NCBI RefSeq assembly: GCF_036199905.1
Contig: NZ_CP108109.1
Coordinates: forward strand, 5,207,501-5,271,500
Origin: Streptomyces sp. NBC_00223
GTDB lineage: Bacteria; Actinomycetota; Actinomycetes; Streptomycetales; Streptomycetaceae
Length of the DNA: 64,000 nucleotides
Direction of reading: 5' to 3'
Shown piece after piece: positions 1 to 13,452 of this stretch (position 1 is the first letter of the stretch; each line of letters begins with the position of its first letter). A program made the translations under genes and the position numbers. The notes under the pieces are model-generated. The model was given only the letters and a program-made list of their open reading frames with translations. It made no database searches and was not told where the DNA came from.

Positions 1-118
1 GGAGATGGCCGCCGCCGGCAATGTCAGCGAGCTGCCGATCTCGGTGTCGTACTCGTACTGGCCGTCGCTCTCGGTCCAGGGCGTGTCCCTGAACCCGAGC
101 CTGCCCTACGCCCAGTAG
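1..118 (+). CDS. RiPP precursor peptide 1, C-terminal part (cut by window edge)
   Basis: The open frame runs from the window edge to TAG at 116-118 and gives 38 residues ending SLNPSLPYAQ. The first residues, EMAAAG, align with the end of the conserved leader (LQEMATT) of the gene at 782-973, so this is the tail of a fourth family member whose start lies outside the window. Its core is Ser-rich, with Ser alternating with hydrophobic residues (PISVSYSYWPSLSV), and has no Cys. It lies 32 bases upstream of the next family member on the same strand. The family assignment rests on this paralogy; the mature product is unknown. Confidence 0.7.
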   Translation, partial: EMAAAGNVSELPISVSYSYWPSLSVQGVSLNPSLPYAQ

Positions 119-150
119 CGGGGGCCGCGAAGCGGCGGAGAGGAGAGGAC

Positions 151-318
151 GTGGACACCTCTGACCTGATGGGCGGTTACACGGCGTACGTCACGCCGAA
201 CGCCGTTCTCCAGGAACTGGCCACCACGGGGGCGACGCAGACGCCGCCCACAGCGTCGATCACGATCACGCTCAGCGTCACGGTGAGCCTGAGTTTCGTG
301 GCGCCGCAACCGCAGTAG
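151..318 (+). CDS. RiPP precursor peptide 2 (55 aa)
   Basis: A GTG start at 151 follows a strong purine-rich site (AGGAGAGG, about 139-148); the stop is TAG at 316-318. Residues 1-26 are the family leader (DLMGGY, AYVTPNAVLQE). Residues 36-49 alternate Ser/Thr at even positions (S36, T38, T40, S42, T44, S46, S48) with I, I, L, V, V, L, F at odd positions, followed by VAPQPQ. There is no Cys. It is too short for most gene finders, but paralogy with the genes at 782 and 986 and the good ribosome site support it. I infer a precursor matured by the kinase/lyase/reductase genes of the same locus; the leader cleavage site cannot be placed. Confidence 0.8.
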   Translation: MDTSDLMGGYTAYVTPNAVLQELATTGATQTPPTASITITLSVTVSLSFVAPQPQ

Positions 319-346
319 CGACAACCGCACAGCAGAAGTACGCCAT

Positions 347-377
347 GGCCCTGCCTCCCCAACGGGAGAGCAGGGCC
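347..377 (+). terminator. Hairpin terminator after precursor 2
   Basis: GGCCCTGC (347-354) pairs with GCAGGGCC (370-377), with an inner CTCCC/GGGAG pairing that leaves one bulged base. It lies 28 bases after the stop of precursor 2. The hairpin and about 14 bases beyond it recur after precursor 4 (1177-1223). Confidence 0.7.
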
Positions 378-781
378 GCGGCGCGTTCCGGCATTCCCCG
401 CACTGCTCCTCGGCGTCCGGCGCATTCGTCGGGCGCCGTTCCGGTCGGCGCCATCCGGCGGGCGGGGTCGCGCAGCGCGCGCGCTGTGCGCGGACCGCAC
501 GCCCGCCGGCGGGGGCGGTGAGAGGGCGACGCCGGTCCGGGCGTGACAGGGCCGTCCGCTTGTCTGGCAGAGGGTTCGGATCTGTCATCCCCATGGCAGA
601 ACGGCATGGCGGCGACCGCGTCCGGACAGGGAATCGCTGACAAGGGGCCGACAATTGCGGCCCGAATGCTGCTATTCCGTTGGCCCGGCCGCCTCTGGTC
701 TTATTGAGGCAGACGGAGAAGCCGCCCGGAAATCCCTCCGGGAAAGGAAAGAATCCGTCGGACGAGACCAAGGAGTTTCCC
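378..781 (+). promoter_or_regulatory. Upstream region of the precursor 3-4 transcript
   Basis: These 400 bases separate the terminator of precursor 2 from precursor 3 and contain no convincing gene. A possible promoter is TTGGCC (680-685), a 16-base spacer and TATTGA (702-707). A small hairpin CCCGGA/TCCGGG lies at 725-742, and AAGGAG (770-775) is six bases before the ATG. CTGTCA/TGACAG hexamers occur at 544-549 and 582-587 and resemble ones upstream of other cluster genes. The promoter is a by-eye guess; the ribosome site is clear. Confidence 0.4.
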
Positions 782-973
782 ATGAACACTGGCGACCTGA
801 TGGCCGGATACGCCGCCTACACCACCCCGAACGCGGTCCTCCAGGAGATGGCCACCACCTCCGCCACCGTGGCCCCCGACAGCTCGATCTCCATCTCCAT
901 CTCGATCTCCTACAGCCTGTCCCTGTCCTGGAGCGTCTCGGTCAGCTTCGTGAACCAGCCCGTCGAGGTGTGA
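782..973 (+). CDS. RiPP precursor peptide 3 (63 aa), alternating Ser/hydrophobic core
   Basis: ATG at 782 with AAGGAG six bases upstream; stop TGA at 971-973. The leader (residues 1-29) carries DLMAGYAAY and TPNAVLQE. The core is striking: every odd residue from S35 to S55 is Ser (11 of them), and every even residue from I36 to F56 is I, I, I, I, Y, L, L, W, V, V or F, followed by VNQPVEV. There is no Cys. Dehydrating the serines and reducing the dehydroalanines would give a 22-residue run of alternating L-hydrophobic and D-Ala residues, the stereochemistry of beta-helical channel peptides. That modification is inferred from the HopA1-like (10084-11088), kinase (11094-12239) and F420-type reductase (8266-9240) genes. 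The composition alone could also suit an unmodified amphipathic beta strand. Confidence 0.85.
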   Translation: MNTGDLMAGYAAYTTPNAVLQEMATTSATVAPDSSISISISISYSLSLSWSVSVSFVNQPVEV

Positions 974-985
974 GGTTCGCGGCCG

Positions 986-1156
986 ATGGACTCCGCTGAT
1001 CCGATGGCCGGCCACGCGGCGTACGTCACGCCGAACGCCGTCCTCCAGGAGACGGCCGCCCCGGGACTCGCCGCCGAGACGATCACCTGGCCGTTCTCGG
1101 TCTCCCTTCCCGGGCCGCCCGGCGTCTCGGTGATCAGCGTCAGCTTCGCCCGGTAA
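986..1156 (+). CDS. RiPP precursor peptide 4 (56 aa)
   Basis: ATG at 986, 12 bases after the stop of precursor 3; stop TAA at 1154-1156. Only a weak GAGG lies upstream, so translational coupling to precursor 3 is likely. The leader is conserved (PMAGHAAYVTPNAVLQE). The core keeps the alternation in two blocks, T32-I-T-W and F37-S-V-S-L, then a PGPPG turn, then V47-S-V-I-S-V-S-F54, ending AR. There is no Cys. The Pro/Gly insert would break a continuous alternating helix, so this product may fold differently from precursor 3. Confidence 0.78.
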   Translation: MDSADPMAGHAAYVTPNAVLQETAAPGLAAETITWPFSVSLPGPPGVSVISVSFAR

Positions 1157-1176
1157 CAACGGCACATGAACGCCTT

Positions 1177-1209
1177 GGCCCTGCCTCCCCGCGAGGGGAG
1201 AGCAGGGCC
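1177..1209. terminator. Bidirectional terminator after precursor 4
   Basis: GGCCCTGC (1177-1184) with GCAGGGCC (1202-1209), plus inner CTCCCC/GGGGAG around a GCGA loop. It sits between two converging genes (precursor 4 and the minus-strand regulator ending at 1237). The stem and the following GCGGCGCGTTCC copy the 347-391 element. Confidence 0.8.
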
Positions 1210-1236
1210 GCGGCGCGTTCCGGGCGGGGCCGTCGC

Positions 1237-3852
1237 TCACGCGGTCCGCGCCTCGGCCGCGCGGTGGGTGAGGACACGGCTGGCGACGCCCACCCGGGAG
1301 GTGCAGTCGAGCTTGCGCATGATCTCGCGCATGTGGTTGACCACGGTCCACTCGGAGATCTGCAGACGGCGGGCGATCTGCTTGTTGCTCATGCCCTCGG
1401 TGACGAGTTCGCAGACCTCCGACTGCCGGGCGGTCAGGACCCCGCCGAAGCCGGCCGAGAGGTTCCCGGTCGCGTACGTGGTGGGCGCGCGCGGCGGCGC
1501 GAGGGGCACGCCGGGGCTGCCGGTGAGGCCGGGCACCCCGCCGGCACCGGACCCGCCGGAGACGCCGACCGCTCCCGGAACGCCGGGAAAGCCCGCCGAC
1601 AGGGCCGACGGCACCGGCACCGTACCGCCGCCCAACTGCGCGATCTGGTCGACCAGCCGTAGCGCCGCCCCCTCCCGCAGGGCCCGCGTGAAGTCCTGGT
1701 CGCCGAGCAGCCGCCGCAAAGGCTGTTCGAGTCCGCTCACCGCGAAGTCCGGCACCGACGCCGCCCCGAGTATCGCCTCGCGGGACGCGTAGAAGCCGCC
1801 CAGCAGCCGTACGGTGCCGAACGCCCGGTCCGACATGCCGGGACGCATCGGGCCCGCGACCACGCGGACGAAGGAGCCCAGCACCGCGACCGCGCCGAGC
1901 CCGCGCAGGCTGGCCAGCGCCCGGTGGAAGTACTCCTCGGCGCGGGCCGCGGCGCCCGCCACCCGACCGTCCGGCCCGGGAGCGCCTGCCCCCGAACCGC
2001 CCGCCGCCGAACCGCCTGCCCCCGAACCGCCCGCAGCCCGGCCGCCCGCCGCCGCGTACGCGCTCAACTGGAGCAGCGCCGTACCGCTGTTGAGGAAGTC
2101 GGCGCGCGAGACCGCGTCCGCGACGACCTCCTGGGCCAGCAACGTCGCCGCTTCCGCGTCGCCGTCGAAGAAGTGCGCGGCCGCGAGGTCGAGCAGGACG
2201 TGGCAGGCCGCGTGCCGGTCGCCGACCTCGCGCCACCGTACGAGCGACTGCCGCAACAGGGCGACGGACGCGCCCGGGACGCCGTGGTGCTCGGTGAGGC
2301 CGCGTACGTGCAGCAGGCGGGCGGCGAGTGCGGGGTCGGCGGCCGCGGCGGGCTCGGCGAGGGCGATCTGTACGCGGGCGGCCTCGGGTTCGCCCGCCCT
2401 GGCCCGTGCCTCGGCCTGGATCAGCCCGGCCCGGGCGGCGGTGGCGGGCGTGGCGGCGGCGGCCCCCGCGCCCGCCCCGACAGCGTTCCTGGCTTCGAAC
2501 TCCCCTGCCCCCGAGAGCCCTTCGAGCAATGCGAGCCGCGTGGCCCAGGCGAACGGCCGTCCGGTGGCCCGCCAGTAGTGGCAGGCGCTGTCCACCAGGT
2601 CCACGGCCTCGTCGTACGCCCCGGCGGCCAGCAGCGTCTCCAGGGCGGCGCCGATGTTGCGCTCCTCGCCGTGGAAGGCGGCCACCCCGGTGTACTGGTC
2701 GCCCGCGCGAATCCGCCGGGCCGCCGCGCGGGCCAGGCCGGCGTAGTAACGGGCGTGCGCCCGGCGGGCGTCGGCGGGGTCCGGCAGCGCGGCGGCAGCG
2801 GCGGCGACCGAGGCCGCGGGCAGGTGCAGCCGTACCCGGGCGAGGCCGTCGAGCGTGCCGGACGGCAGCGCGGACACGGCGAGCAGATGGCGGGCCACCA
2901 GGGGTTCCAGCGCGTCGGAGCGGCCGACCCCGGCGACCGTGCGCAGGGCCTCCGCGCCGAAGCCGCCGGTGAAGACCCGGGCGTGGCCGAGCAGCCGCAG
3001 CGCGACCGGGTCGAGCCCTTCGGTGTCCGCGGTCCCCTCGGCGCCGGACGCGCGGGAGCCGTACGAGCCGCCGTACGAGTCGACCAGCGCGGCCAGGTCG
3101 GTGCGCGCGGGGGCCGACCGCTCGTCCACGGCGGCCGAGAACGCCTCAAGGCCCTCCGTCCCCGCGACCTGCGCGGCCCGGCACAGGGCGTCCGGCACCC
3201 CGCGCAGTTCGGCGCAGATCCGGGCCACGAGATGCTGGTTGGCGTGGTCGACCCGGAAGCCGGGGTGGAGATCGCGGACCCGGTCGGCGAAGAGCCGTAC
3301 GGACGCGACGCGGGCGAGTCCGGCCAGGTCCAGCGCACTGGAGTCCAGCGGTACGGGCAGCGCGCAGACCCGGTACGGGCGCAGCCCGGCGACATCGACC
3401 GGCTGCCGCAGCGCGACCAGGCAGCGGTCGGCGCGGGCGCGGGCGGTGTCGAGTACGTGCCGCAGGGCCGCGGGGGAGAGGCGGTCGAGTCCGTCGAGCA
3501 CGATCAGTTCCAACGGGTCCCGCTCGCCCAGGAGTTCGGCCACGGCCAGGACGGCGGGGTGGTACGGGCCGGCCTCGCCCTCCGCCTCGCTCTCCGCCTC
3601 GGCGTACGTCCGCAGGTCGACGGTCAGCACCTGGCCGGGCACGGCGGCGGCGACGGCCCGCGCCAGCCGGGACTTGCCGATGCCGGGGCCACCGTGCAAC
3701 TGCACTCCCCAGAACTCGGGTTCGGCGAGCAGGCCCAGGACTTCGCGCACGTCCTGGTCCCGGCCGACGAGCGCCGGGAGCGCCGGATACGCCGGGGGCG
3801 GCGGGTCCGCCGGAGCGGGATCGGCGAACCGGGACGCACGTCGCATGGGCAT
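1237..3852 (-). CDS. Large ATP-binding LuxR-family (LAL-like) transcriptional regulator
   Basis: The 871-aa protein has a Walker A motif GGPGIGKS (residues 54-61), a Walker B-like LIVLDGLD near 116, a long helical mid-section of TPR or AAA-regulator character, and a C-terminal LuxR helix-turn-helix (LTARQSEVCELVTEGMSNKQ, with DNA-reading helix near SEWTVVNHMREIM). It therefore looks like an NTP-switched activator of the LAL/STAND type. Two low-complexity linkers are odd: a Gly/Ala-rich one in mid-protein and a collagen-like one just before the HTH (GFPGVPGAVGVSGGSGAGG). ATG at 3852 is favoured by AGGAGG at 3857-3862; ATG at 3846 is possible. It converges on the precursor genes across a shared terminator and is the likely pathway regulator; its target is not shown. 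Confidence 0.88.
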   Translation of the reverse strand: MPMRRASRFADPAPADPPPPAYPALPALVGRDQDVREVLGLLAEPEFWGVQLHGGPGIGKSRLARAVAAAVPGQVLTVDLRTYAEAESEAEGEAGPYHPAVLAVAELLGERDPLELIVLDGLDRLSPAALRHVLDTARARADRCLVALRQPVDVAGLRPYRVCALPVPLDSSALDLAGLARVASVRLFADRVRDLHPGFRVDHANQHLVARICAELRGVPDALCRAAQVAGTEGLEAFSAAVDERSAPARTDLAALVDSYGGSYGSRASGAEGTADTEGLDPVALRLLGHARVFTGGFGAEALRTVAGVGRSDALEPLVARHLLAVSALPSGTLDGLARVRLHLPAASVAAAAAALPDPADARRAHARYYAGLARAAARRIRAGDQYTGVAAFHGEERNIGAALETLLAAGAYDEAVDLVDSACHYWRATGRPFAWATRLALLEGLSGAGEFEARNAVGAGAGAAAATPATAARAGLIQAEARARAGEPEAARVQIALAEPAAAADPALAARLLHVRGLTEHHGVPGASVALLRQSLVRWREVGDRHAACHVLLDLAAAHFFDGDAEAATLLAQEVVADAVSRADFLNSGTALLQLSAYAAAGGRAAGGSGAGGSAAGGSGAGAPGPDGRVAGAAARAEEYFHRALASLRGLGAVAVLGSFVRVVAGPMRPGMSDRAFGTVRLLGGFYASREAILGAASVPDFAVSGLEQPLRRLLGDQDFTRALREGAALRLVDQIAQLGGGTVPVPSALSAGFPGVPGAVGVSGGSGAGGVPGLTGSPGVPLAPPRAPTTYATGNLSAGFGGVLTARQSEVCELVTEGMSNKQIARRLQISEWTVVNHMREIMRKLDCTSRVGVASRVLTHRAAEARTA

Positions 3853-3903
3853 GAACTCCTCCTGGGTGAAAGGGCGTTCGTCGTCGGAAGTGGGGGTCGC
3901 GGA

Positions 3904-4455
3904 TCAGCGGCCGCCCGGGTCGCCGAGGTCGTGCAGCAGCACGGCGGCCGCGATCACGCGGTCGTCAGGGGCCGGGGGCCCGGGGGGCAGCCGTACGACG
4001 CTGACCCGTACCCGACCGGTGCTCACGGGTGGCGGGCCGGCGCCGGGGTCGGTGCCCGGGGCGGCCACCGCGATGACATGGGCGGCCCGGCCCGAGGCCG
4101 CCAGCGCGGCGATCACCTCGGGTCCCGGTAACGGAGACGTACAGCCGGGCGGCGGGAGGTAGACGAGGAGGTCGACCGGGCCGAGATCGGCCGCGATGTC
4201 CGCCAACAGCCCGGGCAGGCCCGCCGGATCGCCGGGGCCGACCCGGTACGGCAGGGCGGTCAGCCCCTGGTCCGTCAGCTCCTTGCTGAGGAAGGCGGCC
4301 CCGCCGCTGCTCCCCGTGGCGGCCACCGCGACGGCCGCGCCGCCCGTGGCGAGCCGGGTGCTGACGATACGGCCGGGCCCACGGGAGCCGTCGACGACGA
4401 GCGCGACCCGGGGGAGGGGAGAGACGGGCCGGCCGGGCGGGGTGGGTGCGGACAC
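3904..4455 (-). CDS. Degenerate short-chain dehydrogenase-like protein (183 aa)
   Basis: A GTG start at 4455 follows a GGGAG site; the stop lies 51 bases upstream of the regulator at 1237-3852, so the two are probably cotranscribed. The N-terminal half resembles an SDR Rossmann fold: RVALVVDGSRGPGRIVSTRL matches the usual VTGxxxGIG strand-loop-helix with altered glycines, then GAAVAVAATG, then GPVDLLVYLPPPG where active SDRs have NNAG. No catalytic Tyr-x-x-x-Lys is visible and the protein ends about 70 residues short of a normal SDR. I read it as a non-catalytic or rewired SDR relative; it may bind a nucleotide or simply be decaying. Confidence 0.6.
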   Translation of the reverse strand: MSAPTPPGRPVSPLPRVALVVDGSRGPGRIVSTRLATGGAAVAVAATGSSGGAAFLSKELTDQGLTALPYRVGPGDPAGLPGLLADIAADLGPVDLLVYLPPPGCTSPLPGPEVIAALAASGRAAHVIAVAAPGTDPGAGPPPVSTGRVRVSVVRLPPGPPAPDDRVIAAAVLLHDLGDPGGR

Positions 4456-4653
4456 GAGGGCTCCCTTTCCTGACAGTTCCGGGCAGTTCGAAAACGATTA
4501 CTGAGAAGGGGGTGATGTCGTGGGTTGGATGGGGCAGAAGAGATCGAATGCCCGGACGATTTACGTGCGCCCTACCGATAAACTTCTCTGCGTTTGCGCG
4601 CTGAGCCATGCCCTGTCCGGTGGTGCCCGTGAGGTCGAAGGGGTGACTGTTCC
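4456..4653. promoter_or_regulatory. Divergent promoter region of the two regulatory transcripts
   Basis: The region lies between the minus-strand GTG at 4455 and the plus-strand regulator at 4654. It holds TGACAGTTCC at 4471-4480; the same octamer TGACAGTT recurs at 12271-12278 upstream of the kinase operon. A shared regulator site is possible but judged only by eye. Confidence 0.4.
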
Positions 4654-5637
4654 TTGTCGGACGAGATGGATCTGGATCAGGAGACGCTCGCCGTCTACCG
4701 GGCCGTACTTCTGCACCACGAGACCGACCCCGAAGCTCTCGCCAAACTCATGGACTTATCGCAGGACCGGGTGACGGCGGCGGTCCGGCGATTGACCGAA
4801 CTGTCGCTGCTCGCGCCCTCCTGGGAGGAGCCCGGCCGGCTGCGGGCGGTCAGACCCGATGTCGGCCTCGGTGTCCTGCTCCAGCGTGAGCAGCGCGAAC
4901 TCGCCGAACGCCAGCGGCGGATCGAGCAGAGCAGGGCCGCACTCGCCTCGCTCGCCGCCGAGTACACCGCGCAGGGCCGGGCGGGTGCGCTGGAGGAGTC
5001 CGAGGAAGTCGTGGGAATCGACGAGATCCGGGCCCGGCTGGAATCGTTGGCCGCCGCATGCAGCCGCGAATCGGTCGCTTTTCATCCTGACACCGCTCTC
5101 ACGGAGGAATCGATAGAAGCCGGCCGCCCGCTCAATGAGCGGGCGCTGGAACGGGGAGTGCGCTTTCGTACCCTCTATCTCGACAGCATCGCCAAGGACC
5201 GCACGACGCGTGAGTACGCGACATGGATGGCCGATCGCGGCAGTGAAATCCGTACGTCGCCGACGCTGCCGATGCGGCTGCTGATCGTGGACGGCACCAC
5301 CGCGGTGGTGGCCGGTCTGCCGAGCCGGGACCAGCCGACCGCCCTGATCCTGCACAGCGCGCCCGTCGTACAGGCGATGCTCGCGCTGTTCGAGGCGTAC
5401 TGGGAGCGGGCCACCCCGCTGGGCCGGCCGGCCGCGCGGCTCGCCAGCGGACTCACCCCGCAGGAAAGACAGTTGCTGCAACTGCTGGCGGCGGGGGCGA
5501 CCGACGACGTGGTGTCGCGGGCGCTGGGCATCGGGGTGCGGACCGAGCGGCGGATCGTGGCCGAGCTGATGGACCGGCTCAAGGCGTCCAGCCGGTTCGA
5601 GGCCGGGGTGAAGGCCGCGCGGCTCGACTGGGTCTGA
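4654..5637 (+). CDS. TrmB/LuxR-type regulator with a TTA (bldA) codon
   Basis: The 327-aa protein starts with a winged-helix-like segment (residues 10-60, LAKLMDLSQDRVTAAVRRL), then a coiled coil (about 78-105), a central effector-like domain containing LPMRLLIVDGTTAVV, and a C-terminal LuxR-type HTH (LTPQERQLLQLLAAGATDDV to ERRIVAELMDRL). This layout is common in Streptomyces regulators next to peptide clusters. Codon 35 (4756-4758) is TTA, the rarest Streptomyces codon, read only by the bldA tRNA, so translation is probably limited to late growth. Start: TTG 4654 with AAGGGG 10 bases upstream; ATG 4666 is an alternative. It is divergent from the SDR-like gene. The effector is unknown. Confidence 0.85.
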   Translation: MSDEMDLDQETLAVYRAVLLHHETDPEALAKLMDLSQDRVTAAVRRLTELSLLAPSWEEPGRLRAVRPDVGLGVLLQREQRELAERQRRIEQSRAALASLAAEYTAQGRAGALEESEEVVGIDEIRARLESLAAACSRESVAFHPDTALTEESIEAGRPLNERALERGVRFRTLYLDSIAKDRTTREYATWMADRGSEIRTSPTLPMRLLIVDGTTAVVAGLPSRDQPTALILHSAPVVQAMLALFEAYWERATPLGRPAARLASGLTPQERQLLQLLAAGATDDVVSRALGIGVRTERRIVAELMDRLKASSRFEAGVKAARLDWV

Positions 5638-5638
5638 C

Positions 5639-5680
5639 GCCCACGGTCCCGACGCGGCCGGGGGCGGCGGGACCGTGGGC
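5639..5680. terminator. Bidirectional terminator
   Basis: GCCCACGGTCCCG (5639-5651) pairs perfectly over 13 bp with 5668-5680, with a 16-base loop. It follows the regulator stop directly and lies downstream of the convergent small gene at 5732-6010. Confidence 0.8.
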
Positions 5681-5731
5681 GACGGGACCGGGGCTCGCTC
5701 GGCCCCCGGCGGCCGGCCGGGTGCGCCGCGG

Positions 5732-6010
5732 TCACGGCCAGACGAAGTCGGCGGGCGTCACCCGCAGCGCGTGGGACGGCCGGACGAACTCCGCGTGCGC
5801 GGCGTGCGCGGCGCGCACCGGCCAGACGAAGTCGGCGGGGACGATCGGCGCCGACGCGCGCTCGAAGTCCACCGAGGAGACGGCGGCGGGCCGCGGTACG
5901 AGGTGCTGCCCGGTGATCGCGGCCACCGCGAGCGCTCCGCATGCGGCGGTCACCGCGACGGTCGCGGAGGTGCCGAGGGTCAGGGAGGCGATACGCAGCG
6001 TAGCGAGCAT
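5732..6010 (-). CDS. Small membrane or secreted protein with ADFVWP repeats (92 aa)
   Basis: ATG at 6010 with GGAG 10 bases upstream. The N-terminus has a basic start and a hydrophobic stretch (IASLTLGTSATVAVTAACG, continuing to AVAAI) that could be a signal peptide or single membrane anchor; a Cys sits near its end. The rest carries imperfect repeats: VDFERA, PADFVWPV, HAEFVRPS and PADFVWP as the very last residues. At the DNA level GGCCAGACGAAGTCGGCGG occurs twice (5736-5754 and 5820-5838). I do not recognise the family. Because it sits beside the exporter within the RiPP locus, it could be an accessory, immunity or multi-core substrate protein; none of these is shown. Confidence 0.65.
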   Translation of the reverse strand: MLATLRIASLTLGTSATVAVTAACGALAVAAITGQHLVPRPAAVSSVDFERASAPIVPADFVWPVRAAHAAHAEFVRPSHALRVTPADFVWP

Positions 6011-6170
6011 GGCGAAACTCCAAGTCCGTGGTGGTGGGCGGGGGTTCAGGGCTCCGGTCCGCCGGTTTCGCGGTGCGTTGCCCTCTGTGAAGAGGTAATC
6101 ACCTCGGAGCGACCCCTGTCCCCAATCGCGGAGGCCAGGATGCTGCCCCGCACATTCCTGCCAAACGGGA

Positions 6171-6205
6171 GGGGTCGCGCGGGCGTGGAGAGCCCGCGCG
6201 ACCCC
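6171..6205 (-). terminator. Strong hairpin terminator after the ABC exporter
   Basis: GGGGTCGCGCGGGC (6171-6184) and its exact complement (6192-6205) form a 14-bp stem with a 7-base loop. It lies downstream of the minus-strand exporter gene (stop at 6318). The rest of the 6011-6317 gap holds no gene; the promoter of the small gene starting at 6010 should lie in 6011-6170. Confidence 0.85.
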
Positions 6206-6317
6206 TGTGACGTGTGTGTTTGTCTGTGCCGTGGGTGGCGATTGAGTGGTGACGGTGTGAGTGTCGGGACGTGGGGGTGTGGGGTCGTGGTGGTGTGGGG
6301 CTGCGAGGGCGTACCCC

Positions 6318-8135
6318 TCAGCGCCCGGCCGGTACGGGCTCCGGCGTCGCCGGAATGAGGGCTGCGGGCGCCTCGGCCTCGGCGGACGAGCCCGCGCCCG
6401 TACCGTTCTGCCCGCTGACCAGCGAGCGGTAGCCCTCGCACTCCCGCAGCAGCTCGAAGTGCGGCCCGGCGCCCAGGACTTCGCCGTCCTGGACGAAGAC
6501 GATCTGGTCCGCGTGCTGCACGGTCGACAGCCGGTGGGCCACCACCACGACCGCCCGGTCGGCGGCCAGCCGGTCCACCGCCTTGCGCAGCAACTGCTCG
6601 TTGACGCCGTCCAGTTGCGAGGACGGCTCGTCCAGCAGCACCACGTCCGCGTCCGACAGCAGCGCCCGGGCCAGCGCGAGACGCTGCCGCTGGCCGCCCG
6701 ACAGGTCGCTCGCCCCGCCGACCCGCGTGTCCAGGCCGTCCGGCAGCGCGCGTACCACCAGGTCCATGCCGACCATGGCGAGCGCGTCCAGCAGCGCGTC
6801 GTCCGGCACGTCCCCGCCGGCCGCCGTCCGCAGGCCGAGCGTGAGGTTCTCCCTGACCGTGCCGTCCAGCAGGGTGAACGACTGGTCGACGTACGAGATC
6901 CGGCTGCGCAGCGCGGTCAGCGGCCACCGGTCGAGCGGGACGCCGTGCAACTCCACGCTGCCGGAGGTGGGTTCGAGCAGCCGCTCGACCATGGTCAGTA
7001 CGGTGGACTTGCCCGCGCCCGACGGGCCGACCAGCGCGGTCAGACCGCGGGCCGGGACGGTCAGCGTCACACCGTGCAGCACCGGCTCGCCGTCGTACCC
7101 GCCGGTCAGACCGCGCAGCCGCAGCGCGGGCGCGCCCGCGACGGCGGGCGGCTCGTGGTCCGGGCCCGGATTCTCGACCGGCATGCCCAGCAGTTCGCGG
7201 ATACGGCCCGAGGCGGACAGACCCGCCTGCACCCGGCCGAGTCCGGAGGCCACCGTGGTCAGCGGGGCGATCAGCTGGAACAGATACATCAGGAAGGCCA
7301 CGAAGTCCGCGGGCGCCAGCGCCCCCGAGGCCAGCCGGGCGCCGCTGCCCGCGACCACCCCGATGATCGCGATCTGCTGCCCGAGGCCCATCAGCGGGCT
7401 GATGAACACCTGCGCCCGGTCGGCGGAGATCGCCGCGTGCGTGGCGGTCTCCGCCTCGGCGGTCACCGCGCGGGCCGCGCTCGTCTCGGCGCGGTTCGCC
7501 TTGATCGTCGACAGCGACCCCAGGGCGGCGGTGAACGCCTGGGCCAGCGAGCCCAGCGCCTCCTGCTGCTCGGTCAGACCCTTGCGGACGTTGCGCACGA
7601 AGACGGCGATCGCCGCGCCCGCGACCAGGAACGTGACGACCACGATCAGCAGCAGCACCCAGTCCAGCAGGCCCATCAGCACCAGCGAGACGACCGAGAT
7701 CAGCGCGGACACCGGCAGCGCGGTGACGCCGACGTCGACCATCGACCGCAGCTGCGCCGCGTCCGTGGTGACCCGGGCCGCCAACTGGCCCGCCCCGATC
7801 CGCCGTACGTCCAGCAGCCGCATCGACATGGCGTGCCTGACCACGCGGCCGCGGGTCTCCAGGATCGCGTACTCGCCGATCCGGCCGAGCAGGAAGGACG
7901 ACCAGGCGCCGGCCATCGCCCCGCCGAGCGCGAGCAGACCGAGGGTGATCACCGACCAGACCGGGGACTTGTGGCTACCGAGGTCCTGGACGACCTGCTT
8001 GACGGACATCGGCACCCACAGCGAGGAGCCCGCGGCGGCCAGGATCAGTACGAAGGCGAGGGCCGCCTGGAAGCGGCGGCGGCGGAACTCTTCGCGGATC
8101 GGCCCTTCCGCGGGGCCTCCGGGGAATCGGGGCAT
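6318..8135 (-). CDS. ABC transporter, fused permease-ATPase (peptide export candidate)
   Basis: The 605-aa half-transporter has a six-helix membrane domain over residues 20-310 and a nucleotide-binding domain with Walker A GPSGAGKST, signature LSGGQRQRL, Walker B VVLLDEPSSQLD and switch His AHRLSTV. It would export a substrate as a homodimer. There is no N-terminal C39 peptidase domain, so it does not itself clip a leader peptide. ATG at 8135 is set by AAGGAG nine bases upstream. It lies 130 bases downstream of the oxidoreductase gene in the same direction. Export of the mature cluster peptide is the natural guess from context. Confidence 0.9.
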   Translation of the reverse strand: MPRFPGGPAEGPIREEFRRRRFQAALAFVLILAAAGSSLWVPMSVKQVVQDLGSHKSPVWSVITLGLLALGGAMAGAWSSFLLGRIGEYAILETRGRVVRHAMSMRLLDVRRIGAGQLAARVTTDAAQLRSMVDVGVTALPVSALISVVSLVLMGLLDWVLLLIVVVTFLVAGAAIAVFVRNVRKGLTEQQEALGSLAQAFTAALGSLSTIKANRAETSAARAVTAEAETATHAAISADRAQVFISPLMGLGQQIAIIGVVAGSGARLASGALAPADFVAFLMYLFQLIAPLTTVASGLGRVQAGLSASGRIRELLGMPVENPGPDHEPPAVAGAPALRLRGLTGGYDGEPVLHGVTLTVPARGLTALVGPSGAGKSTVLTMVERLLEPTSGSVELHGVPLDRWPLTALRSRISYVDQSFTLLDGTVRENLTLGLRTAAGGDVPDDALLDALAMVGMDLVVRALPDGLDTRVGGASDLSGGQRQRLALARALLSDADVVLLDEPSSQLDGVNEQLLRKAVDRLAADRAVVVVAHRLSTVQHADQIVFVQDGEVLGAGPHFELLRECEGYRSLVSGQNGTGAGSSAEAEAPAALIPATPEPVPAGR

Positions 8136-8265
8136 GGCTGAACTCCTTCTCGGGCGGCGGGGGTTGGACGGAGGGGCCGGGGTGGTGCTCGGGCGTTCGC
8201 GCTGGGGTGGGTTGCGGCTTGTACGGCGGCGGCCTTACGGTTCGCGCCGGGCGGGCGTCAGGCGC

Positions 8266-9240
8266 TCAGCCGACCTCGGCGAGGATGTCGCGGAGGTCTT
8301 CGAGGCCCGCCTCCGGGCCGTGCACCGCGCTGACGCCCATCGGGTTGAGGATCACCTCGTCCACACCCGCGTCGAAGTACGCGCGCAGACCCGCGGTGAT
8401 GTCGCCGGGCTTGCCGTACAAGTACACGCCCTCGTCGACCAGTTCACGGGCGCCGGACACCGGGTCGGCCGCGTCCACGTCGAGGCCCGCGCGGCGCAGC
8501 ATGTCGGTGTAGTGCGGGGCGCGCAGGTGGTTGCCCGCGCTGTGCTGGGCCAGCAGCATCGGGTTGCGGCCCGGGCGGGCCACGGCGGCGTGCACGACGG
8601 TCACGACGCGGGGCCGGGGCCGGGTGCCGTCCGCGCCCGCGTCGAGCGCGGGCACGAGCACGTCGCGTACGTAACCGGGCGGGGTCATCCAGGTGATCGC
8701 CGCGCTCGCGGTACGACCGGCCGCCTTCGCCATGCCCGGCCGCAGCACGCCCGCGCCGACCTCGACGGCGGGCGCCTCCATCGGGGGCAGCGGCTGGGCG
8801 ATGCGGAAGTGGGTCCCGGCCGTCGGGACGCCACCGTCGATCAGCGCGGCGACGGCTCCGACGTACTCCCGCACGAACGCGGCGGGCTTGGCGTAGGGCG
8901 CGCCGTGCAGCCGGGAGACGAAGCCGGGGTCTGCGGCGCCGTAGCCGATGGTCGGGGCGTGGCCCATCAGCCGGGCCACGGAACGCGCCTGGAGGGCCGC
9001 GTCGAAGGGGTGCCGGAGCGCGGCGAGGGCCACGCAGATACCGACGGGGATGCGGTAGCCGGTCCCGGCGAGGTACGAGAACGTGGCGTGCGTCTCGACG
9101 GCCAGCGACTGGCCCATCCACAGCCGGGCCGCGGGGCCGTCCTGGACGAGATCGGCGAAGGGTCGCAACTCGTCGGCGTCGTGCGGTTGTTGGGGGAAGA
9201 GCACGGAGACGTGTTCGCTGCTGGTGCGGGTGCTGGTCAC
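8266..9240 (-). CDS. Luciferase-like (LLM) F420-dependent oxidoreductase, candidate dehydroalanine reductase
   Basis: GTG at 9240 with GAGGAGG upstream; 324 aa, usual length for the LLM flavin/F420 family. The barrel signature is visible: RIPVGICVALAALRHPFDAA, then ARLMGHAPTIGYGAADPGFV (the usual 'P..lAr...lD.lS.GR...GiGaG' region), later GVDEVILNPMGV at the C-terminus. In the class V lanthipeptide lexapeptide, an F420H2-dependent enzyme of this superfamily (LxmJ) reduces dehydroalanine to D-Ala. Here the gene is in the same locus as a kinase and a HopA1-like lyase able in principle to make dehydroalanine, so the same role is inferred. Cofactor choice (F420 against FMN) cannot be read safely by eye. 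Confidence 0.8.
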   Translation of the reverse strand: MTSTRTSSEHVSVLFPQQPHDADELRPFADLVQDGPAARLWMGQSLAVETHATFSYLAGTGYRIPVGICVALAALRHPFDAALQARSVARLMGHAPTIGYGAADPGFVSRLHGAPYAKPAAFVREYVGAVAALIDGGVPTAGTHFRIAQPLPPMEAPAVEVGAGVLRPGMAKAAGRTASAAITWMTPPGYVRDVLVPALDAGADGTRPRPRVVTVVHAAVARPGRNPMLLAQHSAGNHLRAPHYTDMLRRAGLDVDAADPVSGARELVDEGVYLYGKPGDITAGLRAYFDAGVDEVILNPMGVSAVHGPEAGLEDLRDILAEVG

Positions 9241-10083
9241 AGCAGCCTCCTCTCGGGTGAGTGCGGGCGGCCTGCGGCCGGGGCGTTGACGGATGAAGCC
9301 GGCGGCCGGTCCCTACCGCCCGCCGAGCGGCTACGTGCAGTCGGCCGACCCCCACCGGCCGGCCCGTCCCCCGGGTGAGGTCCGCCGGTCCAGGCGGCCG
9401 GGTGTGCCGGGGGCGTTCCACGCGGACGGGGGTCGGGCGAGGTCCGCCGGTTCGGGCGGCCGGTTGGGGACGGGGTCGGGCGAGTCCGCCGGTGCAGGCG
9501 GCTGTTGCGGCTTGGGACACGGCTCGCCCGTGCCGTCGACTCGGTGGTGCGTCCGGCCAAGCGGTGGGTCATGGGCCGGGGGCCCGGGGCCTGTTGGTCC
9601 GGGTGCCGGACATCGGGGCTGGGTCTGCTGGCCGCGGTGGCCTTGCGGCTGGGGGCCGTTGGGCGGTTCGTCAGTTGGGGACGGGGGTCGGGCGGGGTCC
9701 GCCGGTTCAGGCGGCCATGGGCCTGGCTGGGTCTGCTGTTCCGGGTGCCCGACATCTGGGCCGGAGCCGCCGGCTGTACCGGCCCTGTGGCCGGGGGCCG
9801 TTGGTCGGTTGGGGGCGGGGGCGGGTGCGGTCCGCTGGTTCAAGCGGCCGGGTGGGCCCGGGGAAGCCTGGTTCGCGTGGCGGCTGCCCGGGTGTCCGGG
9901 CGTGGTCCGTCGGTCGCGGGACCGGTCCGCCGGTGCAGGCGGCCGGAGGCCCCTGGCGCTCGGTGCGGGTGCCGCCGGCTTGGGCGGCCGTCGGGTCCGG
10001 GGCGCGATCGCCCGTGTGGGTGGCCGAGTGGCCTCGGGGCACGCCGCCCGTGCGGGCGGCCGGTGGCCACGTACCGGCCCGCG
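9241..10083. repeat. Non-coding GC-rich repeat tract splitting the maturation genes
   Basis: This 843-base gap between the oxidoreductase and HopA1-like genes carries at least eight degenerate copies of a roughly 20-bp imperfect palindrome (GTCCGCCGGTTCAGGCGGCC), near 9380, 9441, 9483, 9697, 9830, 9923, 9969 and 10042, mixed with GGGGACGGGGGTCGGGCG-like strings. Open frames on both strands cross it, but they are Pro/Arg/Gly-rich, have no recognisable domain and no consistent start, so I call it non-coding. It may be a repeat expansion or a decayed gene. Confidence 0.6.
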
Positions 10084-11088
10084 TCAGGCGGGGATCGGGG
10101 ACGGGGTTCGCGTTGGGGAGGGGAGGGCGGGGGAGTCGACGTTCATCGCGGGGTCCGCCGGGTCCACCCGGGCGTCGAGCAGCGCGCGCGCCACCAGGTC
10201 CGTAAGGTCGCCGCCCGCGGCGCCCCGCATCACGCCGTGCGCCACCGCCGCCGCCCTGTGCTGGCCGAAGCTCATCCGGTCCCAGCCCGTACGGGCGTCC
10301 CGCGGCTCCCACGCGACCGCGACGCCGGGGGCGAGCGCGCGGACGAAGCGGGAGGTGGCCCGGCCCAGACCGGGCAGCGCGCGTACCGCCTCGGCGAGCA
10401 GCACCGCCTCGTCCGTGTCCTCCGCGCCCAGGTAGACCACGATGGCGTCCCTGCGCGGGAAGGACCACGGGCGGGAGATGACCTTGGCCCGGTAGCGGAC
10501 CGACCGCGCGGCGAGCTGCGTCAGCGTCGTGTTCCACAGCAGCGGCGCGGCGTCGGCGTCCTCGACGTGGAGGTACACGCGCAGCACGTCCTGCCGGTGC
10601 ACGCTGTGCCCGAACGGCCCGTCGAGCAGCAGGAATCCGGGCGACAGCGCGGGCCGTACCGCGGGCAGCGCGACCTCGACGGCCGTGCCCACGGCGGGTA
10701 CGGGACCGGCCGGCAGCGCCGACAGCGGCAGGTCGACCCGGACCCGGTCGATCTCGGCGAGCACCACCTCACCGGCAGGACCGGGCCGCGGCTCGGAGCG
10801 GACCACGGCCTTCGCCGTGGACGTGGTGTGCGGGGTAGCGGCGATCAGCCGCTGCTCGTACGGCCGGTCGCGGTGCGGACCGCGCCTGCTGCCGTCCCGG
10901 CGGTCGATGCCGGCGTGCCACTCCTCGTAGAGCACGGAGCCGAGTTCGCGCCGCAGGTCCCGCGCGGAGTCCGCGGTCACCTCGCGCTCGCCGACGCGGG
11001 CGGTGGTGCCGGCCTCGTCGACCCGTACGGTGGCCAGCGCCTCGGCGAGGCCCGCCGCGAGCCGGGGTTGCGTCTGTGGTGCCGTCAT
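10084..11088 (-). CDS. HopA1-like protein, putative phospho-Ser/Thr lyase of the RiPP pathway
   Basis: The ~334-aa protein resembles the HopA1 effector family: LGSVLYEEWHAGIDRR near the N-terminus, GHSVHRQDVLRVYLHVEDAD in the middle, then KVISRPWSFPRRDAIVVYLG and a C-terminal block AWEPRDARTGWDRMSFGQHR. HopA1-family proteins pair with APH-like kinases in thioamitide (TvaC/TvaD) and class V lanthipeptide pathways, where the pair phosphorylates Ser/Thr and eliminates phosphate. The upstream kinase ends in TGA overlapping an in-frame ATG (11094); ATG 11088 has the better spacing from GGAGGAG, and GTG 11097 is also in frame. This tight coupling supports a joint kinase-lyase function. Confidence 0.8.
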   Translation of the reverse strand: MTAPQTQPRLAAGLAEALATVRVDEAGTTARVGEREVTADSARDLRRELGSVLYEEWHAGIDRRDGSRRGPHRDRPYEQRLIAATPHTTSTAKAVVRSEPRPGPAGEVVLAEIDRVRVDLPLSALPAGPVPAVGTAVEVALPAVRPALSPGFLLLDGPFGHSVHRQDVLRVYLHVEDADAAPLLWNTTLTQLAARSVRYRAKVISRPWSFPRRDAIVVYLGAEDTDEAVLLAEAVRALPGLGRATSRFVRALAPGVAVAWEPRDARTGWDRMSFGQHRAAAVAHGVMRGAAGGDLTDLVARALLDARVDPADPAMNVDSPALPSPTRTPSPIPA

Positions 11089-11093
11089 GTTCA

Positions 11094-12239
11094 TCACTCC
11101 TCCACCAGACCGATCGTCTCCACGAAGCGCTCCGGGCTGAGCAGGGCGCCACGGCCGACGCCGGCCACCCCGCGTTCCATGCCGGTGAGTTTGGGGCCGA
11201 ACATCGCCCCGGCGAGCATGCGGTCGAACAGGTGCCAGCCCGCGAAGGCGACCACCCGCTCGGCGAATCCGGGGTCGCCCGGATCGTGGTCCGCGGCCGG
11301 GCGCACCTCGCGGTAGCCCTGCCAGAAGGCGGTGATCAGCGGCCGTACGGCGGTCAGTTCGTCCTCGCCGCCCCGCACGATGCTGCCGTGCGCGTCCCCG
11401 ACGGAGTCCGCGTCAGCGGAGTCCGCGGTGGTGAACATCCGGCTCGCCGCGCGGAAAAGCCACTCGCCGACGAGGCCGCCCACGTCGTGCGCGGGGTCCG
11501 CGAGCCGGAACTCCTCCCAGTCCGTGAGGTACAACTCCTCGCCGACGAGCAGGAATTGGTCGAGCCGCAGATCGCAGTGGCTCGGCACCCGCGAGGCCGC
11601 GTCGGAGCGCTCCCGTAGCGCGGCCAGCGCCCGGTTCAGCCCCTTGTCGTGGTGGATCAGCGCCCACGCCTCCAACTCGGCGAAGCTGCTGCCCGCGTAG
11701 TCCTGGAGGGTCAGCGCCCTGATGTGGCCGGGCAGGCCCGCGCCGCGCAGCTCCTCCATCGACTCCCGGCGTACGGCCAGTTCGTGCACCTCGGCGACCG
11801 CGCGGCCGGCCCGGCGGGCGAGTACTGCGTCGAACTCGCCGTCCTCGGCCACGTGGTGGCCCGCGCGGCCGCCTTCCAGGCGCTCGAAGGCCAGTACCAG
11901 GGCGTCCCGGTCGCCGCCGAGGAAGACCGGGGCCCGCCAGCCGCTCGGTGTGGTCCCCGCGAGCGCCGCCTCGAAGGCGCACAGCCGGTCGAAGCGGGCC
12001 CGGGCGTGCGGGCCCTCGCCGCCGATCCGCTTGACGAACACCTCGCGGCCGCTCTCGGTACGGCCGGCCCAGTTGTCGTTGCGGCCCATGACGCCGGTCA
12101 ACCCGCCGTCCGCCGCGAACCGTCCGAGGCCCAGCCGCTCCATCGCCGCGGCAACCTCGGGAACCTCATCGAGTGGAACGGGGTCGATGCCCCGTACGGG
12201 TGTGTCGGCCTCCGCCGAAAGAGTCGCTGCCATGTCCAT
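11094..12239 (-). CDS. APH-fold kinase, putative RiPP Ser/Thr kinase
   Basis: The 381-aa aminoglycoside-phosphotransferase-like protein has a candidate ATP Lys (EVFVKRI, K70), the catalytic loop SHCDLRLDQF (H221, D223, D227, with Q228 in place of the usual Asn) and a metal-binding D240 in LTDWEEF. Alone it could be an antibiotic or small-molecule kinase. Its gene overlaps that of the HopA1-like lyase, the arrangement of TvaC/TvaD and class V lanthipeptide kinases, so Ser/Thr of the precursor peptides is the likely substrate. ATG 12239 or 12233; no clear Shine-Dalgarno is seen, so a leaderless or weakly translated message is possible. It heads the minus-strand maturation operon. Confidence 0.82.
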   Translation of the reverse strand: MDMAATLSAEADTPVRGIDPVPLDEVPEVAAAMERLGLGRFAADGGLTGVMGRNDNWAGRTESGREVFVKRIGGEGPHARARFDRLCAFEAALAGTTPSGWRAPVFLGGDRDALVLAFERLEGGRAGHHVAEDGEFDAVLARRAGRAVAEVHELAVRRESMEELRGAGLPGHIRALTLQDYAGSSFAELEAWALIHHDKGLNRALAALRERSDAASRVPSHCDLRLDQFLLVGEELYLTDWEEFRLADPAHDVGGLVGEWLFRAASRMFTTADSADADSVGDAHGSIVRGGEDELTAVRPLITAFWQGYREVRPAADHDPGDPGFAERVVAFAGWHLFDRMLAGAMFGPKLTGMERGVAGVGRGALLSPERFVETIGLVEE

Positions 12240-12364
12240 GAAGCTAGGGACAGGGGCGGGGCCCGGACAATGACAGTTACCCGCGTCCCAGGGCCCGGCC
12301 CCCCTCCCAGCAACCTGTCAGACGGCGGCCCCGAGCTGCGGTTTCTCTCCCCTGACAGACAGGT
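12240..12364. promoter_or_regulatory. Promoter region of the maturation operon
   Basis: The region lies between the kinase start and the end of the next gene. It contains TGACAGTTAC (12271-12280), CTGTCA (12315-12320) and TGACAG (12353-12358); the last two form a long-loop inverted repeat that could also act as a terminator for the upstream gene. Similar hexamers lie at 4471 and 544-587. This marks the likely right edge of the RiPP locus. Confidence 0.4.
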
Positions 12365-13426
12365 CTACGAGGGCCGGGTCGCACCCGCGAAGGGCATCTC
12401 CGAGATCGGCGCGATCCGGACCGCCGCGCCCGGGTGCGGGGCGTGGATCATCTGGCCGTTGCCGATGTAGAGGCCGACGTGCGAGACCCCGGAGTAGAAG
12501 AACACCAGGTCGCCCGGGCGCAGTTGCGACTGCGCGACCCGGGTCCCGGCGTTGATCTGGGTGTAGGTGGTACGCGGCAGCGAGACCCCCGCCGACCGCC
12601 AGGCGGCCTGCGTCAGGCCCGAACAGTCGAACGCGCCGGGGCCGGTCGCGCCCCACACGTACGGGCTGCCGAGCGCGCGGTAGGCGAACGCCACGGCCTG
12701 GGCGGCGCGGGCGGAGGGCGCCGGGACGTCGACGACCGGCAGGCGGAGGTGCGAACGGGTGGCGGTGGTCCGCGCGGCGGGGCCGGCACCCTCGGACGCG
12801 TCGACCGAGGCGCGCTGCGGGGCGGTGAGCCTGTCGAGGAGTTCCTGCGCCTCGTGCAGCTTGGTCCGCACGGTCTGCTTCCGCTCCGCGAGCCGGGTCC
12901 GCGCGGTCCGCAGCGCGGCCAGTTTGGCGTCGGCCCGGGCGCGGGTCAGCTCGATGTCCTGGCGCTGCGCGGCCAGTCGGGCCAGAGTCGCGGTCTGTCG
13001 GCCCCCGAGCTGGTTGAGCATCCCGGCCTTCTCCAGATAGCTGTCGGGCGATGAACTCAGCGCCAACTGGAGCCCGGGGTCCAGGGATCCCGAGCGGTAC
13101 TGCGCCGCGGCGATCGAACCGATGGCGTCCCGCGTCGAGTTGAGCCGCGCGGTCTTGCGGGCCAGCTCGTCCTGGAGCGCGGCCACCGCCGCACCGGCCG
13201 CGTGCGACTGCTGCTTCGCGCCGTCGTAGTCCTCCGTCGCCTGCTCGGCCTGCCGGTACAGGGCATCGACCCTCGCCTTGGTCCCGGCCACCGAGGCCCC
13301 TGGATCGGCGTGCGCGGTCTCGCCCCACATCAGGGAGGCGGCCGACGCGAGGACGAGGGTGAGCGCCGCGCGGGCGGTCGTACGGGAGGCCCTGCGCGAA
13401 GCGGGACGGCGACTGTGTGAGGCCAT
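12365..13426 (-). CDS. Secreted NlpC/P60 peptidoglycan endopeptidase (paralogue 1)
   Basis: The 353-aa protein has a signal peptide (RTTARAALTLVLASAASLMW, cleavage near AHADPG), a long coiled coil (about residues 40-205) and a C-terminal NlpC/P60 domain with catalytic Cys in FDCSGLTQAAW and His in SHVGLYIGNGQMIHAPH. Such RipA/CwlO-like enzymes cut D-Glu-diamino acid bonds in wall peptides. ATG 13426 is chosen because it starts the same MASH/MATH motif as the paralogues; GGAAGGAG lies about 12 bases upstream. A large hairpin is present in its leader. It is one of three paralogues within 5 kb (others at 14767 and 16197). Confidence 0.93.
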   Translation of the reverse strand: MASHSRRPASRRASRTTARAALTLVLASAASLMWGETAHADPGASVAGTKARVDALYRQAEQATEDYDGAKQQSHAAGAAVAALQDELARKTARLNSTRDAIGSIAAAQYRSGSLDPGLQLALSSSPDSYLEKAGMLNQLGGRQTATLARLAAQRQDIELTRARADAKLAALRTARTRLAERKQTVRTKLHEAQELLDRLTAPQRASVDASEGAGPAARTTATRSHLRLPVVDVPAPSARAAQAVAFAYRALGSPYVWGATGPGAFDCSGLTQAAWRSAGVSLPRTTYTQINAGTRVAQSQLRPGDLVFFYSGVSHVGLYIGNGQMIHAPHPGAAVRIAPISEMPFAGATRPS

Positions 13427-13452
13427 GCGGCCGGTCACTCCTTCCAAGAGGG

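What the first reader, a model, noticed from the sequence alone, without database searches (positions are those of the whole stretch)
1..12239. Candidate RiPP system making alternating L/D peptides (gramicidin-like)
Seen: four precursors whose cores alternate Ser/Thr with bulky hydrophobic or aromatic residues (11 alternating Ser in precursor 3, residues 35-55), plus an APH-like kinase, a HopA1-like protein, an LLM/F420-type oxidoreductase and an exporter. Known: in class V lanthipeptides, kinase + HopA1-type lyase produce dehydroalanine, and LxmJ (F420H2-dependent) reduces it to D-Ala. Inference: full conversion would make a strictly alternating L-hydrophobic/D-Ala chain of about 22 residues, able to form a beta-helix or membrane channel like gramicidin or polytheonamide, by dehydration-reduction instead of NRPS or radical epimerisation. 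I know of no described system with this core design, but could not search.
Basis: partly seen in the sequence, partly recalled or inferred. Interest (0 to 1): 0.95.

Follow-up and report, generated by a model that had tools for sequence, protein, structure and literature searches.

The report
Ribosomal route to gramicidin-like peptides
A relative of Streptomyces carries genes for small cysteine-free peptides, the strictest of which have serine at every second position of a 22-residue core run, beside enzymes predicted to turn those residues into D-amino acids, so it would likely make gramicidin-like alternating L/D peptides on the ribosome, without the usual giant peptide synthetases.

Summary
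The locus is real and belongs to a family for which I found no description. Five precursor genes lie here (one wholly upstream of the window, one cut by its edge); none has Cys. P1 and P4 have a strict 22-residue Ser/hydrophobic alternation, P3 a 16-residue Ser/Thr one; P2 alternates partly, P5 not significantly. Beside them are a LxmK-type kinase (409 bits, cut-off 315), a HopA1 lyase with the CaoY catalytic residues, an LLM reductase whose model is closest to F420 enzymes, and an exporter. CaoX- and CaoD-like genes, which serve lanthionine/AviCys in class V, gave no hit. Of 65 homologous precursors tested, 49 have a strict alternating run of 12 or more; of 22 Cys-containing class V cores, one does, cacaoidin. 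The Cys-free kinase/lyase/reductase loci split off on one branch in both trees. Best reading: class V dehydration plus F420-type reduction, used alone, write an alternating L-hydrophobic/D-Ala(D-Abu) chain, probably a gramicidin-like beta-helix. Chemistry and channel activity are untested. Against: three related loci have the same enzymes but non-alternating cores. Cacaoidin, with four D-Ala, is a partial precedent.

The parts
1..118 (+). 3' part of precursor P2 (whole gene L009:11939-12118, G000:C1:5207439-5207618): core partly alternating (ISVSYSY), no Cys
   Evidence: run of 7, p=0.019
151..318 (+). precursor P3 (55 aa, GTG start): leader ..TPNAVLQE, strict 16-residue alternation TASITITLSVTVSLSF, no Cys
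   Evidence: NF038146 LxmA_leader 22.5 bits, cut-off 25
782..973 (+). precursor P4 (63 aa): strict 22-residue alternation SISISISISYSLSLSWSVSVSF (11 Ser), aromatics at Y44, W50, F56, no Cys
   Evidence: NF038146 24.7 bits, cut-off 25
986..1156 (+). precursor P5 (56 aa): same leader, core only locally alternating (run 5, p=0.24), no Cys
1237..3852 (-). large ATPase-LuxR (GerE) regulator; similar regulators in several related loci
   Evidence: PF00196 62.6 bits
4654..5637 (+). TrmB-like/LuxR HTH regulator
   Evidence: PF00196 27.5 bits; homologue at 42% in L044
6318..8135 (-). T: ABC transporter, permease plus ATPase, likely peptide exporter
   Evidence: PF00005, PF00664; close homologue (over 400 bits) in 8 of 12 Cys-free loci, this one included
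8266..9240 (-). J: LLM-class reductase, predicted F420H2-dependent (LanJC-like), would reduce Dha/Dhb
10084..11097 (-). Y: HopA1-family lyase (LanY-like), predicted phosphoSer/Thr elimination
   Evidence: PF17914 141.8 bits; PDB 9dk1_B 3.4e-48; H61, R173, K205, R215, Y222 match CaoY residues
11094..12239 (-). K: LxmK-type Ser/Thr kinase, overlaps Y by 4 bases
   Evidence: NF038156 409 bits, cut-off 315; PDB 9dk1_A 6.1e-68; only hit over the cut-off in the genome

Best explanation
The cluster encodes Cys-free precursors, three of the five with strictly alternating Ser/Thr-hydrophobic cores, beside a LxmK-type kinase, a HopA1-type lyase and an LLM-type reductase, and it most likely makes linear, lanthionine-free peptides in which kinase and lyase are predicted to dehydrate the Ser/Thr residues and the reductase would convert them to D-Ala or D-Abu, giving an alternating L/D chain likely to fold as a gramicidin-like beta-helix. 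Steps: (1) the shared leader would dock on K (shown: leader conserved; inferred: binding). (2) K phosphorylates and Y eliminates phosphate, leaving Dha/Dhb at every second position (inferred from homology and conserved catalytic residues). (3) With no Cys to attack Dha/Dhb and no CaoX/CaoD-like gene found, J is the one enzyme conserved in these loci that could act on them further; it would reduce them with F420H2 to D residues (inferred). (4) A peptidase cuts the leader: an M16 pair sits in 5 of 12 Cys-free loci but not here, so here it would act from elsewhere in the genome (inferred). (5) T exports the peptides (inferred). The alternating run, with aromatics towards its C-terminal end in the family, would make a beta-helical membrane peptide or channel (inferred). 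The five paralogues suggest a multi-component product.
For: Kinase and lyase families and solved relatives 9dk1-9dk3. CaoY R187, K219 and R229, whose substitution abolished or impaired elimination in PMC9486802, and Y236 and H57 are conserved in the window and in 10 of 10 Cys-free lyases aligned, the window's included. J: model pLDDT 94.3, closest to F420 enzymes; CofD for F420 in the genome, 432 bits. rosJ deletion gives a product 4 Da lighter, read by its authors as two unreduced Dha (PMC12291118). 49 of 65 homologous precursors have a strict run of 12 or more, each with p <= 0.001, against 1 of 22 Cys-containing class V cores. 64 of 66 homologues have no Cys. X and D hits in 0 of 12 Cys-free loci; K, Y and J in 11 of 12. 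These 11 loci split off on one branch: J tree SH-aLRT 99 (11 against 20), K tree 87 (11 against 32). Aromatics sit late in the 35 non-redundant runs: mean relative place 0.71, 0 of 10,000 permutations as high; in the last six residues of 29 of 35, in the first six of 4 of 35. 34 of 49 runs end within one residue of the C-terminus. Between G961 and G962, four of five precursors have a close counterpart, with 18 synonymous and 3 other codon differences, the 3 all in the leader.
Against: No product, mass or activity is known. L071, L072 and L123 have K, Y and J with Cys-free cores that do not alternate, and they are the nearest relatives of the window in both trees, so J does not imply alternation; L072 and L123 are near copies, so this is about two cases. 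14 of 65 homologous precursors show no significant alternation. P2 and P5 of this cluster alternate poorly. Thr is nearly as common as Ser in the runs (147 and 153 in 35 runs), and LxmJ could not reduce Dhb at its site (PMC8068269); in rosin A1 only two of nine dehydrated residues become D-Ala. So full reduction is not assured. G014 has an alternating precursor but a kinase split over two pieces, a short lyase piece and no J hit in 18.6 kb. No leader peptidase was found beside the cluster. Precursors and loci are related by descent, so the counts are not independent.
Confidence: 0.68

Rival explanations
1. K and Y dehydrate the core but J reduces only some positions, so the product is a mixed alternating peptide of L-hydrophobic residues with Dha/Dhb and a few D-Ala. 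Its backbone would be planar at the dehydro residues and need not form a gramicidin-like beta-helix.
For: LxmJ reduces one Dha and not Dhb at that site (PMC8068269); rosin A1 has nine dehydrations and two D-Ala (PMC12291118). Thr is nearly as common as Ser in the alternating runs.
Against: [quoted passage not shown] The P1 and P4 runs are all Ser, which suits full Dha reduction. J is present in 11 of 12 Cys-free loci although X and D are not found.
Confidence: 0.2
2. The alternating cores stay unmodified or little modified and act as amphipathic beta-strands or functional amyloid; the enzymes serve other peptides.
For: Alternating polar/hydrophobic residues is the classic beta-strand pattern (recalled).
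Against: Precursors share a leader with class V precursors, and K/Y/J lie beside them in 11 of 12 Cys-free loci. K is the only LxmK over the cut-off in the genome.
Confidence: 0.06
3. It is a degenerate class V lanthipeptide cluster that lost Cys, cyclase and decarboxylase and is decaying, with no coherent product.
For: P2 and P5 are irregular; G014's cluster looks broken.
Against: Catalytic residues are conserved; strict alternation recurs in divergent precursors from several actinobacterial lineages; in four close precursor pairs of G961 and G962 no core residue differs, against 18 synonymous codon differences over leader and core.
Confidence: 0.06

Closest known systems
Cacaoidin (class V lanthipeptide, Streptomyces cacaoi; locus L047 here)
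   Same: Homologous kinase, HopA1 lyase, F420-type reductase and ABC exporter; related leader; core holds a 13-residue Ser/Thr-hydrophobic alternation; [quoted passage not shown]
   Different: Cacaoidin has Cys, lanthionine, AviMeCys, N-dimethylation and a disaccharide, and CaoX, CaoD and M16 peptidase genes; the window precursors have no Cys, and these three genes gave no hit in 42 kb
Rosins (class Va, Microbispora rosea ATCC 12950; locus L044 here)
   Same: RosK, RosY, RosJ homologues; rosJ deletion leaves two Dha unreduced by mass (PMC12291118, passages)
   Different: Two D-Ala out of nine dehydrations, with Lan and AviMeCys rings; the two L044 cores tested do not alternate (runs of 5)
Kintamdin
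   Same: HopA1-type and kinase dehydration, putative reductase KinJ and three D-Ala (PMC9415263, passages)
   Different: Has a bis-thioether cross-link (MAbi) and a beta-enamino acid
Gramicidin A (nonribosomal)
   Same: Alternating chirality in a short hydrophobic peptide with aromatics towards the C-terminus is the predicted design here (gramicidin sequence recalled)
   Different: Gramicidin is built by NRPS; here the cores are encoded by genes, and D residues would be Ala/Abu only
Polytheonamides (proteusin RiPPs)
   Same: Ribosomal peptide with alternating L/D residues forming a beta-helix channel (PMC8183687, passages)
   Different: Made by other chemistry (radical SAM epimerases, recalled); no radical SAM family among the 15 neighbouring proteins scanned
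Bicereucin, rodencin, lacticin 3147 (LanJ D-amino-acid lanthipeptides)
   Same: Dehydration then reduction to D-Ala and in part D-Abu (PMC11519912, passages)
   Different: LanM enzymes, LanJA or LanJB reductases, lanthionine rings (PMC11519912, passages)

Membership tests
Class V dehydratase kinase (LanK/LxmK) | Score over the NF038156 cut-off | tested here: met
   409 bits against 315
Class V lyase (LanY) | HopA1 domain and CaoY catalytic residues R187, K219, R229, Y236 | tested here: met
   PF17914 141.8 bits against 22.7; R173, K205, R215, Y222
LanJC reductase | Luciferase-like fold with F420-enzyme resemblance and homology to RosJ/Cao12 | tested here: met
   47% to the L044 (RosJ) protein, 44% to the L047 (Cao12) protein; F420 enzymes head the VIA list
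LanJC reductase | F420H2-dependent reduction of peptidyl Dha to D-Ala | not testable with these tools
   needs enzyme assay
Lanthipeptide, class V | Cys in the core able to form lanthionine | tested here: not met
   no Cys in P1-P5
Lanthipeptide, class Va | LanX cyclase and LanD decarboxylase in the cluster | tested here: not met
   no cao_X or cao_D hit at E<=1e-4 in 42 kb around the window cluster; very distant relatives could be missed
Lanthipeptide, class Vb | LanC cyclase in the cluster | not tested
   no LanC query was run; with no Cys in P1-P5 it would have no substrate
LxmA leader family (NF038146) | Score over the cut-off of 25 bits | tested here: inconclusive
   P4 24.7, P3 22.5, P5 14.3 bits; P1 and P2 not scanned
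Gramicidin (NRPS) | Core assembled by a nonribosomal peptide synthetase | tested here: not met
   the cores are encoded by short genes; no NRPS domain in 15 neighbouring proteins scanned
Proteusin (polytheonamide type) | Radical SAM epimerase beside the precursor | tested here: not met
   none among 15 neighbouring proteins scanned
Beta-helical channel peptides | Alternating L/D backbone and ion conduction | not testable with these tools
   needs Marfey analysis and bilayer recordings

The most novel reading that the evidence does not exclude
A family of ribosomal gramicidins: class V dehydration and F420-type reduction, with lanthionine formation absent, write a strictly alternating L/D chain of about 12-22 residues from a gene, often ending in an aromatic belt, that folds as a beta-helical membrane channel. 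Actinobacteria carry it as arrays of up to six paralogous precursors, so channels could be redesigned by editing codons.
Probability: 0.42. Interest if true: 0.96.

Novelty: new variant of a known kind. Interest (0 to 1): 0.87.

Why it matters
Alternating L/D channel peptides are known from NRPS (gramicidin) and from the heavily modified polytheonamides. A gene-encoded route with one dehydratase pair and one reductase would make such backbones editable at the DNA level, and would show class V enzymes used for stereochemistry rather than for rings. These precursors would be missed by mining that demands Cys in the core, as in PMC9486802 (section 7). The prediction is sharp: -15.995 Da per Ser, and D-Ala at every second position of the run.

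Tried and rejected
Amyloid or unmodified reading: set aside because the cores sit behind class V-like leaders beside K/Y/J. Simple DNA repeat: rejected, Ser codons are mixed. Lanthipeptide reading: rejected, no Cys and no X/D hits. 'J implies alternation': rejected, three loci break it. Precursors of L040, L059, L061 and L065 were not found by a motif scan; that scan was crude, as it also missed the L045 and L055 precursors that one search had found. L061 has J without X or D hits and is unexplained. L055 has a leader hit without Cys but no J, X or D hit; in the trees it counts as 'other', so 'Cys-free' in the tree statements means the 11 Cys-free K/Y/J loci. Not every 'other' locus has a verified Cys precursor. 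Pfam gave nothing for four precursors scanned. The first shuffle test counted alignment gaps as letters and is superseded. The synonymous-only comparison looked up identical peptides, so its result was given beforehand; one search replaces it. That no charged residue lies in a run follows from the definition of a run and is not used. Literature: no Cys-free class V or alternating D-Ala RiPP in the listings of searches; several were capped (for example 30 of 264 and 15 of 4,448 listed), and subscription journals are mostly not held, so this is not proof of absence. In the Foldseek list flavin luciferases stand among the F420 enzymes; VIA separates them.

Rows dropped: P0188 (26 aa) from the shuffle test; L043 (same locus as L019) and L020 (kinase in two pieces) from the trees; L071, L044, L058 and L074 are not in the Y set of 39 (stretch too short or with a stop; L075 has no Y hit); L074 is not in the J set. 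The 28-row alignment given to the structure job leaves out L050, L063 and L126 of the 31 in the J tree. The 22 Cys-containing control cores were picked by hand from the leader hits. Papers were seen as listings, abstracts, passages or named sections: PMC9486802 outline and sections 3, 4 (parts 1 and 2), 7; PMC8068269 sections 3, 5 (part 1), 7 and passages; PMC7794033 section 9 and passages; PMC12291118, PMC9415263, PMC11519912, PMC8183687, PMC10880069 and PMC11447909 passages only.


Full report
What is there. The window is G000:C1:5207501-5271500 of a 7.96 Mb genome. Its first 12.2 kb hold precursor genes on the + strand and, on the - strand, a LuxR regulator, an ABC exporter (T), an LLM reductase (J), a HopA1 lyase (Y) and a kinase (K); a second regulator is on the + strand. 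The upstream stretch shows that there are five precursors: P1 lies outside the window and P2 is cut by its start. All five share the leader ending TPNAVLQE and none has Cys. P1 and P4 are paralogues: a 376-base stretch that includes them is 86% identical. The five proteins scanned upstream are PspC, sensor kinase, response regulator and MerR/PP2C types and one without a family.

Alternation is real. P4 and P1 have 22 residues in strict Ser/hydrophobic alternation, P3 has 16 with Ser and Thr. P2 has 7 and P5 has 5, the last not significant. Among 750 frame stretches of the window nothing else exceeds 8. Ser codons in the runs mix TCN and AGY, so this is not a DNA repeat. In P4 the aromatics fall at 44, 50 and 56, a spacing of six, near one turn of the beta-6.3 helix (helix pitch recalled; an observation, not a test).

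A family, not one locus. A profile search found 66 homologous precursors (sequences). Of 65 tested, 49 have a strict run of at least 12, each with p <= 0.001 by shuffling its own core; 14 have p above 0.05. After collapsing similar cores, 35 of 49 keep such a run. The hydrophobic slots of these 35 runs vary (V 92, I 58, W 53, L 37, A 23, Y 19, F 19, G 2), as do the others between Ser (153) and Thr (147). Examples: SLSLSLSVSLSVTYSWSWTW (P0133) and SLSLTVTLTITVTI (P0176). 64 of 66 lack Cys. Many runs end at the C-terminus (34 of 49 within one residue), and aromatics sit late in the runs (mean relative place 0.71, 0 of 10,000 permutations as high). Of 22 Cys-containing class V cores only cacaoidin has a run of 12 or more.

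Gene content. Twelve Cys-free loci were compared with references from the cacaoidin cluster. Eleven of twelve have K, Y and J; the twelfth, G014, has a split kinase, a short lyase piece and no J hit. None of twelve has a hit for CaoX or CaoD at E <= 1e-4. Of the 29 other loci of the kinase scan (31 loci less L042 and L043), 21 have an X hit and 20 a D hit, the cacaoidin locus itself included. J also occurs in 18 of those 29, so J alone does not mark the group. An M16 peptidase pair sits in 5 of 12 Cys-free loci (L125-L128 and G014's), not in the window; the window genome has M16 genes elsewhere. No other biosynthetic gene recurs in three or more of the Cys-free loci (the rest are regulators, an HTH and a peptidase-like pair, a membrane protein, and genes shared by closely related genomes). 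Precursor arrays reach six hits in one locus.

Trees. In the reductase tree the 11 Cys-free K/Y/J loci are split from the 20 others by one branch, SH-aLRT 99; in the kinase tree likewise, 11 from 32, SH-aLRT 87. These are quick trees without bootstraps, and the kinase of L129 is a long branch. Three loci with non-alternating Cys-free cores (L071, L072, L123) are nested inside, next to the window. So alternation was probably ancestral to the group and lost there, and the window's own P2 and P5 may be on the way (inference).

Spread. Matches with the alternating-precursor profile: 8 of 391 genomes of the order, 1 of 396 of the phylum sample, the window's own, 5 of 341 of the family of the Microbispora rosea genome. 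With earlier profiles: 3 of 35 of the genus, 9 of 394 of the family. Several of the hits are Cys-containing class V or non-alternating precursors. The trait is rare and scattered.

Mechanism. Shown: Cys-free alternating precursors, class V dehydratase genes with conserved catalytic residues, an F420-type reductase fold, no CaoX or CaoD relatives found. Inferred: dehydration at the alternating Ser/Thr, reduction to D residues, leader removal, export, a beta-helix in membranes. The weakest steps are completeness of reduction, above all for Thr-derived Dhb, and the biological role.

Known and new. [quoted passage not shown] In rosin A1 two of nine dehydrated residues become D-Ala, and by mass rosJ deletion leaves them unreduced (PMC12291118, passages). 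PMC7794033 (section 9) already noted that the kinase/HopA1 pair occurs in many contexts and may leave residues dehydrated without thioether rings. I found no description of Cys-free, strictly alternating class V-like precursors in the listings of ten text searches of an open-licence library. I therefore file this as a new variant of class V chemistry with a probably new product type.

Noticed in passing
window 15866-16020 (-): c-di-AMP riboswitch (RF00379, 85 bits) in front of one of three neighbouring NlpC/P60 protein genes (12365-13822, 14791-15876, 16203-17258, all -).
   Followed up: no
window 13717-14679 (+): A methyltransferase gene (PF08241) beyond the first NlpC/P60 gene; nothing like it recurs in three or more Cys-free loci, so probably not part of the cluster.
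   Followed up: partly
L020 (G014:C126) about 12455-13771: A sister cluster with an intact alternating precursor but a kinase in two tblastn pieces and a short lyase piece; sequence error or decay.
   Followed up: partly
L071, L072, L123: Relatives with K, Y and J and Cys-free, Thr-containing but non-alternating cores; a sister product type that deserves its own study.
   Followed up: partly
L125-L128 (G961, G962, G1125, G1128): Loci from the family of Microbispora rosea with four to six precursor hits each beside K, Y, J, T and an M16 peptidase pair; one core reads SITLTVTVSWTWTWTWTY.
   Followed up: partly
L061 (Lentzea sp. NBRC 102530) 10001-12718: Kinase, lyase and reductase without CaoX or CaoD hits; its precursor was not found.
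   Followed up: partly
P0156, P0166: Two of the 66 precursor homologues carry a precomputed Pfam label PF28162, but the Pfam copy held here returned no family for them.
   Followed up: partly
window 9240-10084 (-): An 844-base gap between J and Y, while J follows Y directly in 8 of the 11 Cys-free K/Y/J loci.
   Followed up: no
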